DNA from: Haliotis asinina
Taxonomy: Eukaryota > Mollusca > Gastropoda > Lepetellida > Haliotidae
Assembly: GCF_037392515.1 (NCBI RefSeq)
Contig: NC_090281.1
Location: forward strand, 45,112,645 to 45,176,644
Direction: 5' to 3'
Length of the DNA: 64,000 bases
Position 1 is the stretch's first letter. Each line of letters starts with the position of its first letter. A program made the position numbers and the translations under genes. Shown here piece by piece: positions 58,301-60,903 of this stretch. The notes under the pieces are model-generated. The model had not been told where the DNA came from, searched no databases, and saw nothing but the letters and a program-made list of their open reading frames with translations.

Positions 58301-60903
58301 AGCATTTCATGCTTCCACTGCTTCTTTCATGGGTCATAAGAACTTAGTTTTTTTGGAAATATAGAGATTCTTTGGTATTTGTCTTTTGATGAGATTTCTG
58401 GCATATTCTGTATCAGCATGTCAAAAAACGATGACAACGGTGACAAAAATATTGATCAAAGGTCAGGTTGAGGGATTTTATTCTGAAAAGTCACCTCAGA
58501 GTTTAAAAAATGCATGAAACTGTAAAACTTCAGAGTTAAGAAATTGTGTTATTTAATGAGTTTGATGAGTTGACCACACAAGCACCAGGCTAGTTACTTA
58601 CTTTTTAAGCCCATTGTCCAAACACTGGCTATGATTGAAGTTAAGAATTCTTTGGGTTACAAATATTTTGAGAATAATTAGCCCTGGTGACCAATTTTTA
58701 ATGAAACTGTATGCTTTAAATCTCTTGTGGCATGTGAATGTTTAATTTAATTAAATGGGGATAGCTGAGAGATAGGGAAAATGAATTTGATAATTATTTT
58801 TGAAAGTATGGCCATATCATTTGTACATTCAAACAATTTTGTTTTATATAATCAGGATATATGACCTATGGATTTGTCCCTTCCATTGTCACCAATATTT
58901 CCTCACACATTCTCATATCCTGCTGGACTCCATGTGGGAGTTATCTCCCTTGACTTCACTCCCGACTTCCTTTCAGGAAAAAGAAAAGAAATATATGCTT
59001 CCGCTGGACAACCTGAAACTGCGCGATGTCGACGGGGGGATATTCTCCCGCCACCCCACATTCGCTCTTTTCAATACTGATGCTAGGTATATCATTTTAG
59101 ATGGGCACCTTTTCTCACCATTTTGCCCTGAATATTGTCATGCTAAATTTAGCATGCAATTCTGCTGTAGACTTTAGCTGTTCTAATCATGCCCTCGTAA
59201 CTTTTCATACTCTCTACTTGTGTAAGTGTTGTAATAACTCCGTACTAGTTGCATGATTGGTATAAACCTGTTAGAGCATGTTACTGTGGATTGGTGGATA
59301 AGCAACTAGTTTGTTCATCATTCTATGAAAGATAGATACAGACACAGATTGCCCCTGTCTCATTTTAGAACTAGCCTTATTCTGAAAATTCTGAACCAGT
59401 TTGATATTTAAACATTGGTACTTTGGGCCAAGGTCAAGGTCATTAAGGCTTTGAAAAAGTGAAAACATCTGATGACCATTTTCATGATTTTAAAGCAAAT
59501 AGCACGTCATTCATTTATTCTCTAAGTGAAAAATCGTTACTCTTGACACACTTGCTTAATGAAATAAAATTAAAATAATATTTATCTTTCATATGGTAGA
59601 AATGCTGGTTGTTGTTGAATGTATATAAATGTATATTTCTTTAGCATCCTTGTGCTTTCCTTTACACAAAATGAGGGAAACAACCTGCATTGCATGAGCA
59701 AATCTTCCATCATTGACTTGAGGAATTGAATTCAATATAAAAAACTTGAAGAAACGTAAAATTTATTGTAACTATGTTTACTCTGTTAATGTGTTTTAAT
59801 CATCTGTTCCTTCAAATTTGGAATCTGCTTTGGTCAAACAGACTTACCGTCAGGAATCTGACCATGAGCAAAGTTTGACCTTGATATCCAATCTTATTTG
59901 ATGTAATGAACAGTTGTTCAAACTGTTAGACCTTCAATTTCAAATAGTGTTTGGTTTTGATTATTCAGGTACTGTTTTTCTTCATGTTGTCTTTGAATTC
60001 ATTCCGAGGCTTCTTCATCCCCCAGCTTTTTGTGTTGGTTTACTTCCTGTTCTGGTGCACTTTGGGAGATGTCAGCATGACAGCCATGTTGTGACATCAC
60101 ATGCTTGTATTTTAGGAGAAAGATAAGAAGTATATGTTAAACCTGGACAATTTGAAGATTCGAGACCTTGAGGCAGGATTTATATCCAAGAAATTTCCTT
60201 TTGCCCTCTTCAATCCTGATTCCAGGTAGAACGCTTCTTCTGATAACATACAGATGTTTAGATCTAGAACTGGTTGGTCTCGTTTGTTCGGGAACAGTTT
60301 ACAAAAATGCACATACATTTGTGCTTGTTCTTGGTGCAAATGACATTTAGTGAGCTTGAATTATACGAAAATATGAACATGTGGATTTGTATGATGATAA
60401 CTTCCAGTTCATATAATTATGTGAACTGGGAAATAATTCAGTTTTGCAGTTCATAGGAAAACAGTGAAAGACGTGACCTTGTTCAATGGTTCTCAGAAGA
60501 TTTTACTTGGGACACCTGATATGAGAACATTTTCTGGATTTTATTACTGTTTCAGTTGTGTTCTTTGATATAAGTGCCAAATTTGGATCAATAGGTTTTC
60601 ACGGTTTCAATGTAATTGCTCCAAATGTCTTCATTATTGGAAATGCCTAGCGCATGTCTTTGAAAACTGATGCACAGTCTGCATGAGCATTTTTATTAAA
60701 CTGTTCGCTTATAAAACGTATGTCTGTGAGCTTGAGTGTTGTTGATGTTGTTTTCAAACACTTATTTTGTTGTTTCGTAACTTCATTGTACAGGAACGAG
60801 AAAAGCGCTACATGCTGCCCCTTGATGGGCTAAGGTTGCGAGATATTGAAGGGGGCTTTCTCTCACACAAACATATGTTTGCATTGTTTAACCCTGAGAC
60901 CAG
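19142..60903 (+). CDS. Classical dynamin GTPase, 5' portion (13 exons plus three alternative PH exons; continues beyond the window)
   Basis: Exons: 19142-19305, 37121-37194, 38911-39060, 40352-40555, 40982-41080, 43387-43495, 50738-50932, 51088-51223, 51698-51765, 52844-52982, 53468-53625, 54660-54711, 55768-55881, then one of 58977-59086, 60116-60225 or 60794-60903. They splice in one open frame of 590 codons plus two bases. G1 is GSQSAGKSS (Lys45), the switch I Thr is at 66, G3 is DLPG (137-140) and G4 is TKLD (206-209). Residues about 320-516 form the stalk/middle part ([32 protein letters not shown], then [18 protein letters not shown]). The PH domain starts at 517 ([20 protein letters not shown]). 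The family assembles into membrane-cutting helices in endocytosis; human DNM1-3 are the closest remembered relatives. Downstream PH, GED and proline-rich parts are outside the window. The start fits MGNRGMEDLIPLV of mammals with one extra residue. Confidence 0.96.
19987..20768. repeat. 391-bp tandem duplication in dynamin intron 1
   Basis: AGGATAGTCTGGTACTTTGA begins at 19987 and again at 20378. The copies are almost identical over their length, with scattered substitutions such as CTTC/CGTC and AAATGG/AATTAG. Both end in ATTCATAAGAAGAAGACT. Confidence 0.95.
21212..21475 (-). mobile_element. SINE-like repeat, family H, minus strand
   Basis: Begins GAGTGAGTTCAGTTTTATGA (reverse tail) and contains GATCAGACAATCCAGTAATC and GACCACCCGATTCTGATAGT. 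Ends near CCCCGGATCTTCAGTGG. Confidence 0.8.
22790..23050 (+). mobile_element. 5S rRNA-derived SINE
   Basis: The head AATCAGGTGATGTTAAGCAA ... TCCTTGGATGGGCGACCATG matches the 3' half of metazoan 5S rRNA (GAAGTTAAGCAAC ... TACTTGGATGGGTGACCG). The body ends with CACCCAGCAAAAAGTGGGTA and GGCAGCTTGGGTTATCC. A second copy lies in intron 12. Confidence 0.7.
23160..23290 (+). mobile_element. Degraded 5S-like SINE fragment
   Basis: AAGTCCGGTGACATTAAACA and TTGGTTGCATGGGGGACTGT show the same layout as the 5S-derived head but are more diverged. The call depends on comparison with the copy just upstream. Confidence 0.4.
24574..24678. repeat. 52-bp direct tandem duplication
   Basis: GTTGTCAAGATTAATCTGTA followed by AGTAATTTATGTAATCAGGT occurs twice in succession with very few differences. 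Confidence 0.9.
24934..25340. mobile_element. MITE-like dispersed repeat, copy 1
   Basis: Starts TTACAGGGGTTAAAAAATCC and includes CATTGCCCGATGCCTGTGAC, CAAATAATGATATCTTATTA and a 3' part with CAAGGCAAGTGCTAAATTCA and GTCACTTGCCCTGTGGC. It is clearly related to 30375-30745. Confidence 0.65.
26648..26800 (+). mobile_element. tRNA-derived SINE (family T), degraded
   Basis: Contains AATACAATGTGGGATGCCCA then TTTCTGGTGTCAGCTTGCTG and TTGAATATTGCTAAAAGAAG. Confidence 0.65.
27176..27500. repeat. 40-bp minisatellite
   Basis: About seven copies of TTTCACTTCAACACCACCCT-CACTTCCACACCCTGACCTG, with strong strand asymmetry (C and T/A, very little G). Flanking sequence from 27005 is also pyrimidine-rich and may be older units. 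Confidence 0.92.
28368..28885 (+). mobile_element. Cluster of three family H SINE copies
   Basis: 28368-28487 is a partial copy. 28488-28762 is the most complete copy in the window, from CCCGTGAAGGTCCCGGGGTA through ATCGGGTGGTCAGACTAGCT and CTCGATTATTTACAGACCGC to GCGACGTAAAACTAAACTCA. 28758-28885 is a 3' fragment with the tail. Confidence 0.9.
29801..29963 (+). mobile_element. tRNA-derived SINE (family T), near full length
   Basis: Head GAGTGGCTTAGTGGTTAAAG, B-box-like GGGTTTGATTCTCC, body CCCATTTCTGGTGTACCCCG and tail AAAACCAAACTCATTCACCC. Confidence 0.85.
30375..30745. mobile_element. MITE-like dispersed repeat, copy 2
   Basis: Shares AAAAATCCCATTGCCTGATG, AATCAAATAATGGTATCTTA and the CAGGGCAAGTGGAAAATTAG / GTCACTTGCCTTGTGGC end with copy 1. 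It retains the right end GAACCCCTGTGTAAC, which is the inverse of the left end of copy 1. Confidence 0.65.
32670..33220. repeat. Three diverged tandem units of about 185 bp
   Basis: Each unit has (TTTCCATGGA...), a TCTCAAA.TG core, CGGAGCA.AACTCGAAAACC-like text, a TTGGCAGATAT.TGAG segment and TGGTGCCTTTTGC.  The copies are considerably diverged, so the array is old. Confidence 0.7.
33352..33720. repeat. 51-bp minisatellite derived from a family H SINE segment
   Basis: About seven units of AATTGGTCTTCAGCAACCCA-TGCTTGTCGTACCCATTAAG-ATCCAGCTCAG, starting near 33352, 33403, 33451, 33502, 33553 and 33604. Since 51 = 3 x 17, frames on both strands stay open (for example 17-residue repeats on the minus strand), but this is repeat DNA. 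The last unit reads on into the normal SINE text (GTCGTGAGAGACGACTGATG). Confidence 0.9.
34385..35045. repeat. Diverged tandem repeat of about 145 bp
   Basis: About four units share TTGTTAACGCAATATCTCAT, CAAATTTGGTGACAGCCTAC, GGGGGATTACACAGGCAACA/CAGACACCAGT and TTGACCTTGACCTTATTTTC. The block ends AGCGGTGGGGGACATTGCCA. Confidence 0.75.
35078..35284 (-). mobile_element. SINE-like repeat, family H, minus strand
   Basis: Contains GCAGTATTCCAGCTACGTAG, ACGGACAATCCACTGATCAA and GCCTGACCACCTGATCCAGT, ending GGTTACTGAAGACCAATTC. Confidence 0.8.
35835..36190. repeat. Irregular minisatellite (GTTGACTGT / AACAGAGAAATTGACTG)
   Basis: Recurring GAGTTGACTGTGTTAACAGA and AATTGACTGATAAGTAACGG blocks with variable spacing of roughly 40-50 bp. 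Confidence 0.8.
37121..37194 (+). CDS. Dynamin exon 2
   Basis: Acceptor CTATTTTCAG, donor GTATGT; 74 nt. It encodes [20 protein letters not shown] with the switch I threonine. It is separated from exon 1 by a 17.8-kb intron. Confidence 0.95.
37195..38910 (+). other. Dynamin intron 2, with a family T SINE and a tRNA-like fragment
   Basis: Contains a near full-length family T SINE at 37689-37852 (GGGTAGTCAAGTGGTCAAAG ... TGTAAAACTAAACTCACTCA) and a head fragment at about 38744-38815 (GACGTAGCTCAGCGGTTAAA ... GGGTTCGATTCTGG). The latter ends about 95 bp before exon 3. Nothing else is recognisable. Confidence 0.75.
38911..39060 (+). CDS. Dynamin exon 3
   Basis: Acceptor TTGTTCCCAG, donor GTATGT; 150 nt. 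It encodes [20 protein letters not shown] through INLRVYSPN in the GTPase domain. Confidence 0.95.
40100..40236 (+). mobile_element. Family T SINE, degraded, in dynamin intron 3
   Basis: TTTAATTTGATTCCTTACGT, TGAAGCTCATTTCTGGTGTC and GCATAAAACTGAACTCACTC match the family body and tail. It ends about 115 bp before exon 4. Confidence 0.7.
40352..40555 (+). CDS. Dynamin exon 4
   Basis: Acceptor CCTGTTTCAG, donor GTCAGA; 204 nt. It encodes [19 protein letters not shown] with the G3 motif and switch II. Confidence 0.95.
40982..41080 (+). CDS. Dynamin exon 5
   Basis: Acceptor AATGTTCAG, donor GTCAGT; 99 nt. It encodes [20 protein letters not shown] with the G4 motif TKLD. Confidence 0.95.
41279..43315. 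mobile_element. Possible TTAA-flanked non-autonomous element holding a 382-392 bp tandem repeat (dynamin intron 5)
   Basis: The left end reads TTAA-AGGTCACATATACTC and the right end reads GACTTTAGTGGTCCT-TTAA, so both junctions are TTAA with short inverted ends (AGGtCAC / AGGaCCAC). Inside, a repeat starting GTGTCATGCAAA at 41964 and 42346, with a third start near 42742, carries TGGTAGTAAAATATGTATTT and TTGATGGACAATAGGATTTT. A piggyBac-type origin is only a guess; the inverted ends are very short. Confidence 0.35.
41964..42790. repeat. Tandem repeat, about 2.1 copies of 382-392 bp
   Basis: Copy 1 from 41964 and copy 2 from 42346 are about 90% alike by eye; a third copy breaks off after TGCAAAATCCTTTTGGTCAG. 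A piece resembling the unit end precedes copy 1. Confidence 0.9.
43387..43495 (+). CDS. Dynamin exon 6
   Basis: Acceptor GTCACACAG, donor GTGAGT; 109 nt. It encodes [20 protein letters not shown] and [10 protein letters not shown], the end of the GTPase core. Confidence 0.95.
43536..43620. repeat. CTATTGCAATA-rich repeat
   Basis: Several overlapping ACTATTGCAATA / GCAATAGT words just after dynamin exon 6. Simple or transposon-terminal repeat; origin unknown. Confidence 0.6.
44611..44717. mobile_element. Inverted-repeat (MITE-like) element in dynamin intron 6
   Basis: The left arm includes CCTCTGAGGTTTTGGTAGAC and AATGTAAAA; the right arm includes TTTTACATTGTCTACCAAAA and CCGAGGAGAAGTGTTTCTC. 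The arms are about 40 bp with a loop of about 26 nt. Confidence 0.75.
45591..45700 (+). mobile_element. hAT-like terminal sequence
   Basis: ACTAGAGGTGTGACGATACA followed by alternating CGATTTGTATCACGATATC and AATACGATTCGATTC words resembles the left terminus of hAT-type elements as I recall it. The matching right end was not found. Confidence 0.45.
46085..46108. promoter_or_regulatory. Two perfect TGACGTCA (CRE) palindromes
   Basis: TGACGTCA occurs at 46085-46092 and 46101-46108, 16 bp apart, in the text GTAATGACGTCATTACATAA then TGACGTCATG. The arrangement is itself palindromic, so it may be part of a repeat rather than a CREB-regulated enhancer. Confidence 0.35.
46935..48155 (-). pseudogene. 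Decayed mobile-element-associated ORF of unassigned function, minus strand, inside dynamin intron 6
   Basis: Reading the minus strand with several frame changes gives connected protein-like stretches in order: [20 protein letters not shown] with [19 protein letters not shown] (near 47.6-47.5 kb), [20 protein letters not shown] (about 47.35-47.28 kb), [20 protein letters not shown] with [16 protein letters not shown] (47.27-47.1 kb) and [16 protein letters not shown] ending [12 protein letters not shown] at 46935. The order and style (TLDVGE...RGxH..., then a SVRWMRY-type segment, then KK...LC...YY.FY) recall a multi-copy protein family common in invertebrate genomes that I cannot name. At least two frameshifts and a central gap show it is broken. 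Confidence 0.5.
49040..49080 (-). promoter_or_regulatory. TATA-like promoter candidate, minus strand
   Basis: The minus strand reads GTGCATATAAAGGCTGGTTG, a strong TATA match (TATAAA at 49070-49075) followed by G+C-richer sequence. It lies about 0.9 kb upstream of the decayed minus-strand ORF and could be its original promoter. Confidence 0.3.
49985..50125. repeat. Imperfect direct duplication of about 80 bp
   Basis: GGAATTTCATGTTAAAGCTT-GATGAAGTGGAGATTGTGTC and TTGAATTTCACGTTGAAGCT-TGATGAAGTGAAGACTGTGT are successive diverged copies, preceded by CTTGGAAA-type words. Confidence 0.75.
50738..50932 (+). CDS. Dynamin exon 7
   Basis: Acceptor GATTATTTCAG, donor GTGAGT; 195 nt. It encodes [20 protein letters not shown] into the first stalk helices. 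Confidence 0.95.
51088..51223 (+). CDS. Dynamin exon 8
   Basis: Acceptor CCATTTCAG, donor GTAAGG; 136 nt. It encodes [20 protein letters not shown] and [15 protein letters not shown] in the stalk. Confidence 0.95.
51698..51765 (+). CDS. Dynamin exon 9
   Basis: Acceptor TTGTTTTCAG, donor GTCAGT; 68 nt. It encodes [20 protein letters not shown] then GIR. Its last 41 nt and its donor are repeated three more times immediately downstream. Confidence 0.94.
51725..52255 (+). repeat. 136-bp tandem repeat made of the exon 9 3' end plus its donor and intron
   Basis: The unit starts AAGGAGATTGGCATTGTCAT at 51725 (inside exon 9) and recurs at 51861, 51997 and 52133, a strict 136-bp period. Each unit holds the last 41 nt of exon 9, the GTCAGT donor and 95 bp of intron 9. 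Copies 2-4 lack the true acceptor but each is preceded by TTTATTCCTAAG, which has some acceptor character. Copies differ by very few bases. Confidence 0.96.
52844..52982 (+). CDS. Dynamin exon 10 (stalk; position of vertebrate 10a/10b)
   Basis: Acceptor ATGCCACAG, donor GTGAGA; 139 nt, residues 400-446. It encodes [20 protein letters not shown] and [20 protein letters not shown]. In mammalian DNM1 this is the mutually exclusive exon pair; only one version was found here. Confidence 0.95.
53468..53625 (+). CDS. Dynamin exon 11
   Basis: Acceptor CCTGTTTCAG, donor GTACGT; 158 nt. It encodes [20 protein letters not shown] and [19 protein letters not shown]. Confidence 0.95.
53657..53997. repeat. 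Perfect 140-bp inverted repeat of a tRNA-derived sequence, intron 11
   Basis: 53657-53796 and 53858-53997 are exact reverse complements around a 61-bp spacer. The right arm reads, in plus sense, CTCTGAGGGTGCGGGTTCGA-ATCCCGGATGGGACTCA, with a B-box-like GGTTCGAATCC. The left arm continues, on the minus strand, into GTCGCGGTGGCTGAGCGGGC, a Leu/Ser-tRNA-like 5' half. The acceptor stem pairs poorly, so I treat it as a SINE head, not a working tRNA. The spacer holds a direct copy of the first 33 nt of the left arm. Confidence 0.93.
54155..54460 (+). mobile_element. 5S rRNA-derived SINE, dynamin intron 11
   Basis: CAGGAATTAAGCAACATTAG ... TTTGGATTGGTGACTGTGTT is the diverged 5S-like head. The body ends CACCCAGCTGATAATGGATA, CCCGGTGGGATG and CACAAGCAGCATGGGTCATC. 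It lines up with 22790-23050. Confidence 0.65.
54660..54711 (+). CDS. Dynamin exon 12 (stalk-PH linker)
   Basis: Acceptor CTGTGTTACAG, donor GTAGGC; 52 nt. It encodes [17 protein letters not shown], matching the ANAQQR...NKKK...GNQ linker that precedes the PH domain. Confidence 0.93.
55558..55708 (+). mobile_element. Degraded family H SINE just upstream of dynamin exon 13
   Basis: CAGGGTTAGAATTGGTCTTC, ATGTACCCAAGATTTATGGA and CTGATCATTAGATTTTGTGG follow the family order with many changes. It ends about 60 bp before the exon. Confidence 0.55.
55768..55881 (+). CDS. Dynamin exon 13 (start of PH domain)
   Basis: Acceptor CTGGTTGCAG, donor GTAAGA; 114 nt, phase 0 at both ends. It encodes [20 protein letters not shown] then [18 protein letters not shown]. 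The lipid-inserting variable loop lies in the first half. Confidence 0.95.
55963..56105 (+). mobile_element. tRNA-derived SINE (family T) in dynamin intron 13
   Basis: ATGAAATAGCTCAGTGGTTA, GGGTTTATACCCCACATAGG and CCTATTTCTGGTGTCCCCAG, with a recognisable tail. Confidence 0.75.
56632..56770 (+). mobile_element. tRNA-derived SINE (family T) in dynamin intron 13
   Basis: GGGGTAGCCCAGTGGTTAAA head, GAGTTGATTCCCC box, a shortened body and a CTCACTCACTCACTC end. Confidence 0.8.
58135..58158. repeat. (AT)n microsatellite upstream of PH exon 14a
   Basis: ACATATATATATATATATAT and continuation, about 12 dinucleotides, about 820 bp before exon 14a. Confidence 0.9.
58977..59086 (+). CDS. Dynamin alternative PH exon 14a
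   Basis: Acceptor CTTCCTTTCAG, donor GTATAT; 110 nt. It encodes [20 protein letters not shown] followed by [16 protein letters not shown] and two bases of R. It corresponds to the PH strand containing KEKKYML in human dynamins and shares 23 of 37 residues with 14b and 22 of 37 with 14c. Of the three it has the strongest pyrimidine tract. Confidence 0.93.
60116..60225 (+). CDS. Dynamin alternative PH exon 14b
   Basis: Acceptor CTTGTATTTTAG, donor GTAGAA; 110 nt. It encodes [20 protein letters not shown] followed by [16 protein letters not shown] and two bases of R. Both phases equal those of 14a. The reading frame and splice sites are intact, so it is not a decayed copy. Confidence 0.93.
60794..60903 (+). 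CDS. Dynamin alternative PH exon 14c
   Basis: Acceptor TTCATTGTACAG, donor GTAGGT; 110 nt. It encodes [20 protein letters not shown] followed by [16 protein letters not shown] and two bases of R. The [10 protein letters not shown] segment is the version most like vertebrate SSKHIFALFN. Confidence 0.93.

What the first reader, a model, noticed from the sequence alone, without database searches (positions are those of the whole stretch)
58977..60903. Three mutually exclusive PH-domain exons in one dynamin gene
Three exons of identical length (110 nt), identical phases and intact splice sites encode alternative versions of the same 37 residues (about 22-23 identical in any pair). All are open and conserve YML, LRD/IRD and FALFN, so all appear to be under selection. 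The choice would let one gene make at least three membrane-binding specificities. I know of no description of triplicated PH exons in a dynamin; vertebrate DNM1/DNM2 vary the stalk exon instead.
Basis: partly seen in the sequence, partly recalled or inferred. Interest (0 to 1): 0.9.

Follow-up and report, generated by a model that had tools for sequence, protein, structure and literature searches.

The report
Triplicated mutually exclusive dynamin PH exon
An abalone gene for dynamin, the enzyme that pinches vesicles off membranes, carries three interchangeable versions of one exon of its membrane-binding domain; the same three versions recur in other snails and some in bivalves, so this looks like an old, kept way to make several dynamins from one gene.

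Summary
Three 110-nt exons (58977-59086, 60116-60225, 60794-60903, +) of equal phase, with AG/GT borders and open frames, encode alternative residues 558-594 (dynamin-1 numbering) of the PH domain of one classical dynamin gene. The organism is Haliotis asinina. In its genome the preceding exon 13 gives one match, exon 14 exactly three. Skipping exon 14, or joining two or three copies, shifts the frame to a stop. Database isoform models use 14b and 14c in H. asinina; models of all three types exist in H. rufescens, Gigantopelta and Physella, with the rest of the protein identical or nearly so. No H. asinina model with 14a was listed. The exon tree groups by type, not species; the types predate the gastropod subclasses sampled and probably the gastropod-bivalve split. 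The types differ most in the beta5-beta6 loop, which (recalled; paper not held) is membrane-interacting. Most likely, mutually exclusive splicing tunes how dynamin engages membranes. Junction reads, tissue patterns and lipid binding were not tested. The isoforms exist as database models; five library searches listed no paper on them. New variant of a known kind.

The parts
19142..54711 (+). Exons 1-12 of the classical dynamin gene (first exon 19142-19305, twelfth 54660-54711)
   Evidence: Spliced by hand with AG/GT borders into one open frame; identical to P0001 and P0006
55768..55881 (+). Exon 13: first part of the PH domain, variable loop 1 included; shared by all isoforms
   Evidence: single match in the genome
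58977..59086 (+). Exon 14a, [36 protein letters not shown](R)
   Evidence: type also in H. rufescens X3, Gigantopelta X6, Physella X5
59087..60115 (+). Intron between 14a and 14b, 1029 nt
   Evidence: From the exon borders; no pairing signal over shuffles
60116..60225 (+). Exon 14b, [36 protein letters not shown](R); closest to the form of non-molluscs
   Evidence: used in P0001, H. asinina isoform X2; tree
60226..60793 (+). Intron between 14b and 14c, 568 nt
   Evidence: From the exon borders; no pairing signal over shuffles
60794..60903 (+). Exon 14c, [36 protein letters not shown](R)
   Evidence: used in P0006, H. asinina isoform X3

Best explanation
This is a three-member cluster of mutually exclusive exons, made by old tandem exon duplication, in the single classical dynamin gene of an abalone. 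Shown by sequence: each copy alone fits between exons 13 and 15; skipping or combining copies breaks the frame. Shown by comparison: the three types are separately conserved. Inferred: the spliceosome picks one copy per transcript and wrong combinations are removed as frameshifted messages. Inferred: the choice swaps the PH segment running from the phosphoinositide-binding beta4 strand through the beta5-beta6 loop to the edge of variable loop 3, which tunes how strongly, or at which membrane, dynamin engages, while the fold, stalk and GTPase stay the same. Odds: the splicing part about 0.95, the membrane-tuning part about 0.6; the figure below is for both together.
For: Equal length, phase and borders. 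Stops after none, ab, ac, bc and abc. Three exon 14 matches but one exon 13 match in the genome. Isoform models identical outside exon 14: 817/817 H. asinina b-c, 819/819 for two H. rufescens pairs, 822/822 Mercenaria, 827/827 and 811/812 Gigantopelta, 797/797 Physella X1-X5. Tree groups by type; one-clade trees rejected for Haliotis, Gigantopelta and Physella. pS 0.86-0.89 against pN 0.25-0.29 between copies. Lys/Arg at 559, 561 and 562 kept in the 25 mollusc sequences tabulated, while class-typical changes gather at 577-585. K562 of beta4 is needed for PIP2 binding in dynamin-2 (PMC8563704, passages).
Against: No junction reads were seen. No H. asinina model with 14a was listed, although the 14a isoform was itself a query; the numbering X2, X3 implies an X1 that I did not see. 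No competing RNA structure was found. The paper on the beta5-beta6 loop could not be read, and the structure model is poor (mean pLDDT 55). The types differ by few charges, so the lipid preference could be the same.
Confidence: 0.6

Rival explanations
1. The exons are mutually exclusive, but what they tune is not lipid engagement: they change PH-stalk autoinhibition, polymer stability or a protein partner that binds the PH loops.
For: PMC9652393 (passages) describes the PH-stalk interface as auto-inhibitory and another alternative exon, 12b, that acts near it. PMC8563704 (passages) reports that a deletion in VL2, next to this segment, stabilises polymers without changing PIP2 binding.
Against: The most class-typical stretch is the beta5-beta6 loop, recalled to face the membrane. 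This reading is not excluded by any search.
Confidence: 0.25
2. The exons are mutually exclusive but functionally near equal; the array survives because exon choice carries expression control or by inertia.
For: Fold, basic lipid site and most core positions are shared.
Against: Each type keeps its own residues across gastropod subclasses and the copies have not been homogenised.
Confidence: 0.1
3. The copies are not mutually exclusive alternatives: they are included together in some transcripts, or one or two of them are unused relics.
For: 14a and 14b have donors matching the consensus at only 4 of 7 positions, like exon 7 and below the rest. Elysia crispata models P0002 and P0003 join types b and c through other sequence in one protein. 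No H. asinina model with 14a was listed.
Against: Joined copies shift the frame to a stop in H. asinina. Models of all three types exist in H. rufescens, Gigantopelta and Physella. Frames stay open although synonymous sites are saturated. The Elysia joins look like annotation errors.
Confidence: 0.05

Closest known systems
Mutually exclusive exons 10a/10b of mammalian dynamin-2 (PMC9652393, passages)
   Same: Same gene family; one of several homologous exons is chosen per transcript
   Different: Exon 10 lies before the PH domain, in the stalk region (recalled), and has two versions; here a PH exon has three
Human clusters of mutually exclusive exons (PMC5740500, passages): 71 clusters of three to ten exons, frame shift listed among the ways exclusivity is enforced
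   Same: Tandem homologous exons of the same frame; joined inclusion shifts the frame
   Different: Those were validated with junction reads; these were not. A dynamin PH cluster is not described in the passages I saw
ARNO (cytohesin) diglycine/triglycine splice variants (PMC6823287, passages)
   Same: Alternative splicing inside a PH domain, reported to change phosphoinositide specificity
   Different: There one glycine in the beta1/beta2 loop; here a 37-residue exon swap later in the domain. By coincidence H. rufescens 14c has one more glycine than H. asinina 14c
Dscam-like arrays with docking and selector RNA pairing (PMC6071210 and PMC8042237, listing and start of abstracts)
   Same: Tandem exon array from which one is chosen
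   Different: No intronic pairing above shuffled sequence was found here

Membership tests
Classical dynamin | GTPase, middle, PH and GED domains in one protein | tested here: met
   P0001, whose first 591 residues equal the spliced window, carries PF00350, PF01031, PF00169, PF02212 (precomputed)
Classical dynamin | C-terminal proline-rich tail | tested here: met
   Seen by eye in P0001; its tail exons lie in L004 downstream
Mutually exclusive exon cluster | Neighbouring internal exons of similar length, same phase and homologous sequence | tested here: met
Mutually exclusive exon cluster | Skipping or joint inclusion not productive | tested here: met
   None, ab, ac, bc, abc all reach a stop; a, b, c alone do not
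Mutually exclusive exon cluster | Transcripts hold exactly one copy | tested here: inconclusive
   Database protein models for b and c in H. asinina and for a, b, c in H. rufescens; models only, no reads
Docking-selector (Dscam-like) mutually exclusive splicing | Competing intronic RNA pairings | tested here: inconclusive
   Best duplex -38.7 kcal/mol in 13565 window pairs against -43.7 in the shuffled control; one genome, no covariation possible
Steric or U2/U12 exclusion | Very short intervening introns or mixed splice-site classes | tested here: not met
   Introns of 1029 and 568 nt; donors and acceptors look like the major class by eye; no U12 scan was run
PH-domain specificity switch by splicing (ARNO-like) | Isoforms bind different phosphoinositides | not testable with these tools
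   Needs binding assays

The most novel reading that the evidence does not exclude
Since before gastropods and bivalves split, molluscs have used one dynamin gene with three PH-domain exons as a splice-coded switch of membrane target or fission behaviour, doing by splicing part of what vertebrates do with three dynamin genes.
Probability: 0.35. Interest if true: 0.8.

Novelty: new variant of a known kind. Interest (0 to 1): 0.62.

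Why it matters
Dynamin's PH domain is a much studied membrane-binding module, and human dynamin-2 mutations in or beside this segment (K562E, deletion of 555-557) are linked to Charcot-Marie-Tooth neuropathy (PMC8563704, passages). Molluscs appear to have kept three natural versions of the segment for a very long time, which supplies evolution-tested variants of loops whose part in fission is debated. It is also a compact case of one gene dividing labour by exon choice, in animals that include classic synapse models: the listed Aplysia and Lymnaea models carry the c type.

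Tried and rejected
Recent duplication within abalone: rejected by the tree and the one-clade tests. Separate duplication within bivalves: all 14 bivalve rows as one clade rejected at p 0.006; the a-class held together (14 rows, chosen after seeing the tree) is not rejected, p 0.36. The branches that join gastropod and bivalve members are weak (87/73 for a, 86/68 for c; 37 columns), so the older date is likely, not proven. Ostrea X20, C. virginica and Pinctada, which I call c-like by eye, do not fall in the c group of the tree.

Docking-selector RNA pairing: no signal. An extra small exon in variable loop 3, as in models of some other species, was sought in 60904-64104: 23 candidates, none convincing to me. 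A second copy of the 57-nt GED exon in Haliotis was sought in about 14 kb around it: one found. Rfam: 0 matches in the window. The structure model (mean pLDDT 55) is too poor to lean on; it puts strands at 560-563, 568-571 and 581-586 of P0001, so the variable stretch falls in the loop between the last two.

Papers: the paper on the membrane-interacting loop is not held; searches did not bring it, and I saw its title only.

Full report
What was checked. Exons 14a (58977-59086), 14b (60116-60225) and 14c (60794-60903) are each 110 nt, enter in phase 0 and leave in phase 2, have AG before and GT after, and are open in one frame only. With the arginine completed by exon 15 they share 23 (a-b), 22 (a-c) and 22 (b-c) of 37 residues. 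The gene was rebuilt from exon 1 (19142) to exon 14. The b and c versions equal the NCBI-named H. asinina proteins P0001 (isoform X2) and P0006 (isoform X3) over 591 residues, of which 590 are read from the window and the last is the shared arginine. The contig length listed with those proteins (101,978,182) equals that of the contig holding the window, so the organism is taken to be Haliotis asinina.

Copy number. The 14c peptide finds three places in the 1.14-Gb genome, and they are these three. The exon 13 peptide finds one. So this assembly shows one first half and three second halves of a classical dynamin PH domain. Both searches score only the best candidates. A third such check, with a GED peptide, did not complete.

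Frame logic. Exon 13, one copy and exon 15 give an open frame for a, b or c. None, ab, ac, bc and abc each run into a stop. 110 is not a multiple of three; three copies together are, but the second copy is then read in a wrong frame with stops. The introns between copies are 1029 and 568 nt, so steric exclusion is unlikely, and the splice sites look like the major class by eye. Donors of 14a and 14b match the consensus at 4 of 7 positions, 14c at 6, the other thirteen exons at 4 to 6. The best intron-intron duplex of 13,565 window pairs is -38.7 kcal/mol, against -43.7 in the shuffled control, so no pairing stands out. Frame-based loss of wrong messages is thus the only enforcement that the sequence shows. 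What makes the choice is unknown.

Conservation. Three protein searches listed the best 120 of 1767, 4946 and 670 hits, 234 different proteins in all. H. rufescens has isoforms with a (X3), b (X4) and c (X1, X2, X5, X6), listed with one contig length. Exon identity to H. asinina is 36, 32 and 37 of 37; c has one extra glycine in H. rufescens. Gigantopelta aegis (Neomphalina) has X6, X1 and X3, and Physella acuta (Heterobranchia) X5, X1 and X2, as a, b and c. Littorina shows a and b, Pomacea a and c, Elysia crispata b and c inside one oddly joined model. Mercenaria (Bivalvia) has an a-like X3 and an X2 that the tree puts with b and the non-molluscs. Ostrea edulis has an a-like X8 and an X20 that looks c-like but is not placed there by the tree. 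I saw no H. asinina model with 14a.

Same gene. Outside exon 14, isoform pairs of a species are identical or nearly so: 817/817 in H. asinina; 819/819 for two H. rufescens pairs and 788/814 for a third, which differs in the tail; 811/812 (15 gap columns) and 827/827 in Gigantopelta; 797/797 and 790/798 in Physella; 822/822 in Mercenaria; 815/820 (31 gap columns) in Ostrea; 802/808 in Littorina. Pomacea is the exception, 655/745 with 63 gap columns, its C0Q70 model differing from the N-terminus on. All these are database models; I did not see their read support.

Tree. I hand-picked 70 exon sequences (62 named proteins of the 234, two from the joined Elysia crispata model, exon 14a of the window, five nameless proteins) and built a tree on 37 columns, few for so many rows; 17 of 64 inner branches are well supported. 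Type c of Haliotis, Gigantopelta, Pomacea, Physella and others falls with mussel and scallop sequences. Type a falls with Ostrea X8, Saccostrea, Sinanodonta and Mercenaria X3. Type b falls among annelid, nemertean, arthropod, hemichordate and vertebrate sequences, so it probably keeps the ancestral form, though the root is not known. Holding each species' or genus's copies together is rejected for Haliotis (p 3.1e-4), Gigantopelta (3.0e-38) and Physella (8.3e-47). Holding all 14 bivalve rows together is rejected (p 0.006); holding the a-class together is not (p 0.36). The triplication thus predates the gastropod subclasses sampled and probably the gastropod-bivalve split. Several bivalves and limpets appear with one type only, but the lists are capped, so absence there means little.

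Selection. Between the three copies synonymous sites are saturated (pS 0.86-0.89) while nonsynonymous differences are limited (pN 0.25-0.29). With open frames this says that all three have long been kept as protein.

What differs. Solved dynamin-1 (4uud, 864 residues) aligns from its residue 520 with the start of exon 13 (the alignments printed have no gaps), so exon 14 covers residues 558-594. PMC8563704 (passages) puts the PIP2-binding lysines in VL2 and beta4 and reports that K562E abolishes binding; VL1, which inserts into the membrane (PMC9653092, passages), lies in the shared exon 13. For a position table I chose 25 mollusc exons (9 a, 8 b, 8 c) and 8 of non-molluscs. Positions 559, 561 and 562 are Lys or Arg in all 25. 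Class-typical residues gather at 577-585. Type b has Phe579 and Met or Ile at 580, as the 8 non-molluscs have Phe-Met. Types a and c have Phe or Leu at 580, mostly after Ile or Leu; exceptions are Haliotis c (Phe-Leu), Gigantopelta c and Mercenaria X3 (Phe-Phe). Net charge of 576-586 is +1 in 8 of 8 b and 8 of 8 non-molluscs, and 0 in 8 of 9 a and 8 of 8 c. Left out of the table were, among others, the oyster and Pinctada forms, Solemya, Patella, Sinanodonta, Mercenaria X2 and Ruditapes, some with one residue more or less in this loop; outside the table Lingula and Branchiostoma also depart from Phe-Met. From memory, this loop is the 'VL4' of Khurana and colleagues 2023, of which I saw the title only.

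How it most likely works. One of three exons is spliced in. The PH domain keeps its fold and basic lipid site but gets a different beta5-beta6 loop and slightly different edges, which changes how the membrane is engaged and perhaps fission or autoinhibition. I hold the splicing part at about 0.95 and the membrane-tuning part at about 0.6.

Known or new. Mutually exclusive exons are a known kind; human clusters of three to ten exist (PMC5740500, passages). PMC9652393 (passages) lists the alternative exons of dynamin-2 as 10a/10b, 12b and 13b; none is described as replacing this part of the PH domain. ARNO shows that splicing inside a PH domain can change lipid specificity (PMC6823287, passages). 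In the held library, searches (2 of 2 listed; none; none; 25 of 222 listed; 19 of 19 listed) showed no title or abstract start on alternative PH exons of a dynamin. That library lacks most subscription papers, and the isoforms already stand in databases as models, so 'undescribed' means no more than that.

Noticed in passing
window 51724-52254: A 136-bp unit in 3.9 tandem copies, 99% alike; each unit holds the 3' half of dynamin exon 9 with its donor site, so the end of a coding exon is repeated into the intron, without its own acceptor as far as I saw.
   Followed up: partly
P0008 vs P0125, P0021 vs P0066, P0045 vs P0078 (residues about 683-702): A 57-nt exon of the GED region also seems to have two versions in Physella, Littorina and Pomacea models; Haliotis showed one copy in the stretch searched.
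   Followed up: partly
P0023, P0024, P0037, P0054, P0151, P0173, P0175: Models of Littorina, Tubulanus, Dermacentor, Bradybaena, Lymnaea and Aplysia carry an insert between exon 14 and NVYK, in variable loop 3, differing between species; perhaps an optional small exon.
   Followed up: partly
P0121, Xenopus tropicalis dynamin-1 isoform X6: This model holds a partial second copy of the start of the PH exon (EMEKKYMLPVDNLKLRDIK before EKEKKYML), either a vertebrate partial duplication or an annotation error.
   Followed up: no
window 1-3347; 19986-20769; 33350-33684: A satellite-like array at the window start (periods 98, 147 and 245, multiples of about 49 bp), a 392-bp direct duplication in intron 1, and a 51-bp array.
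   Followed up: no
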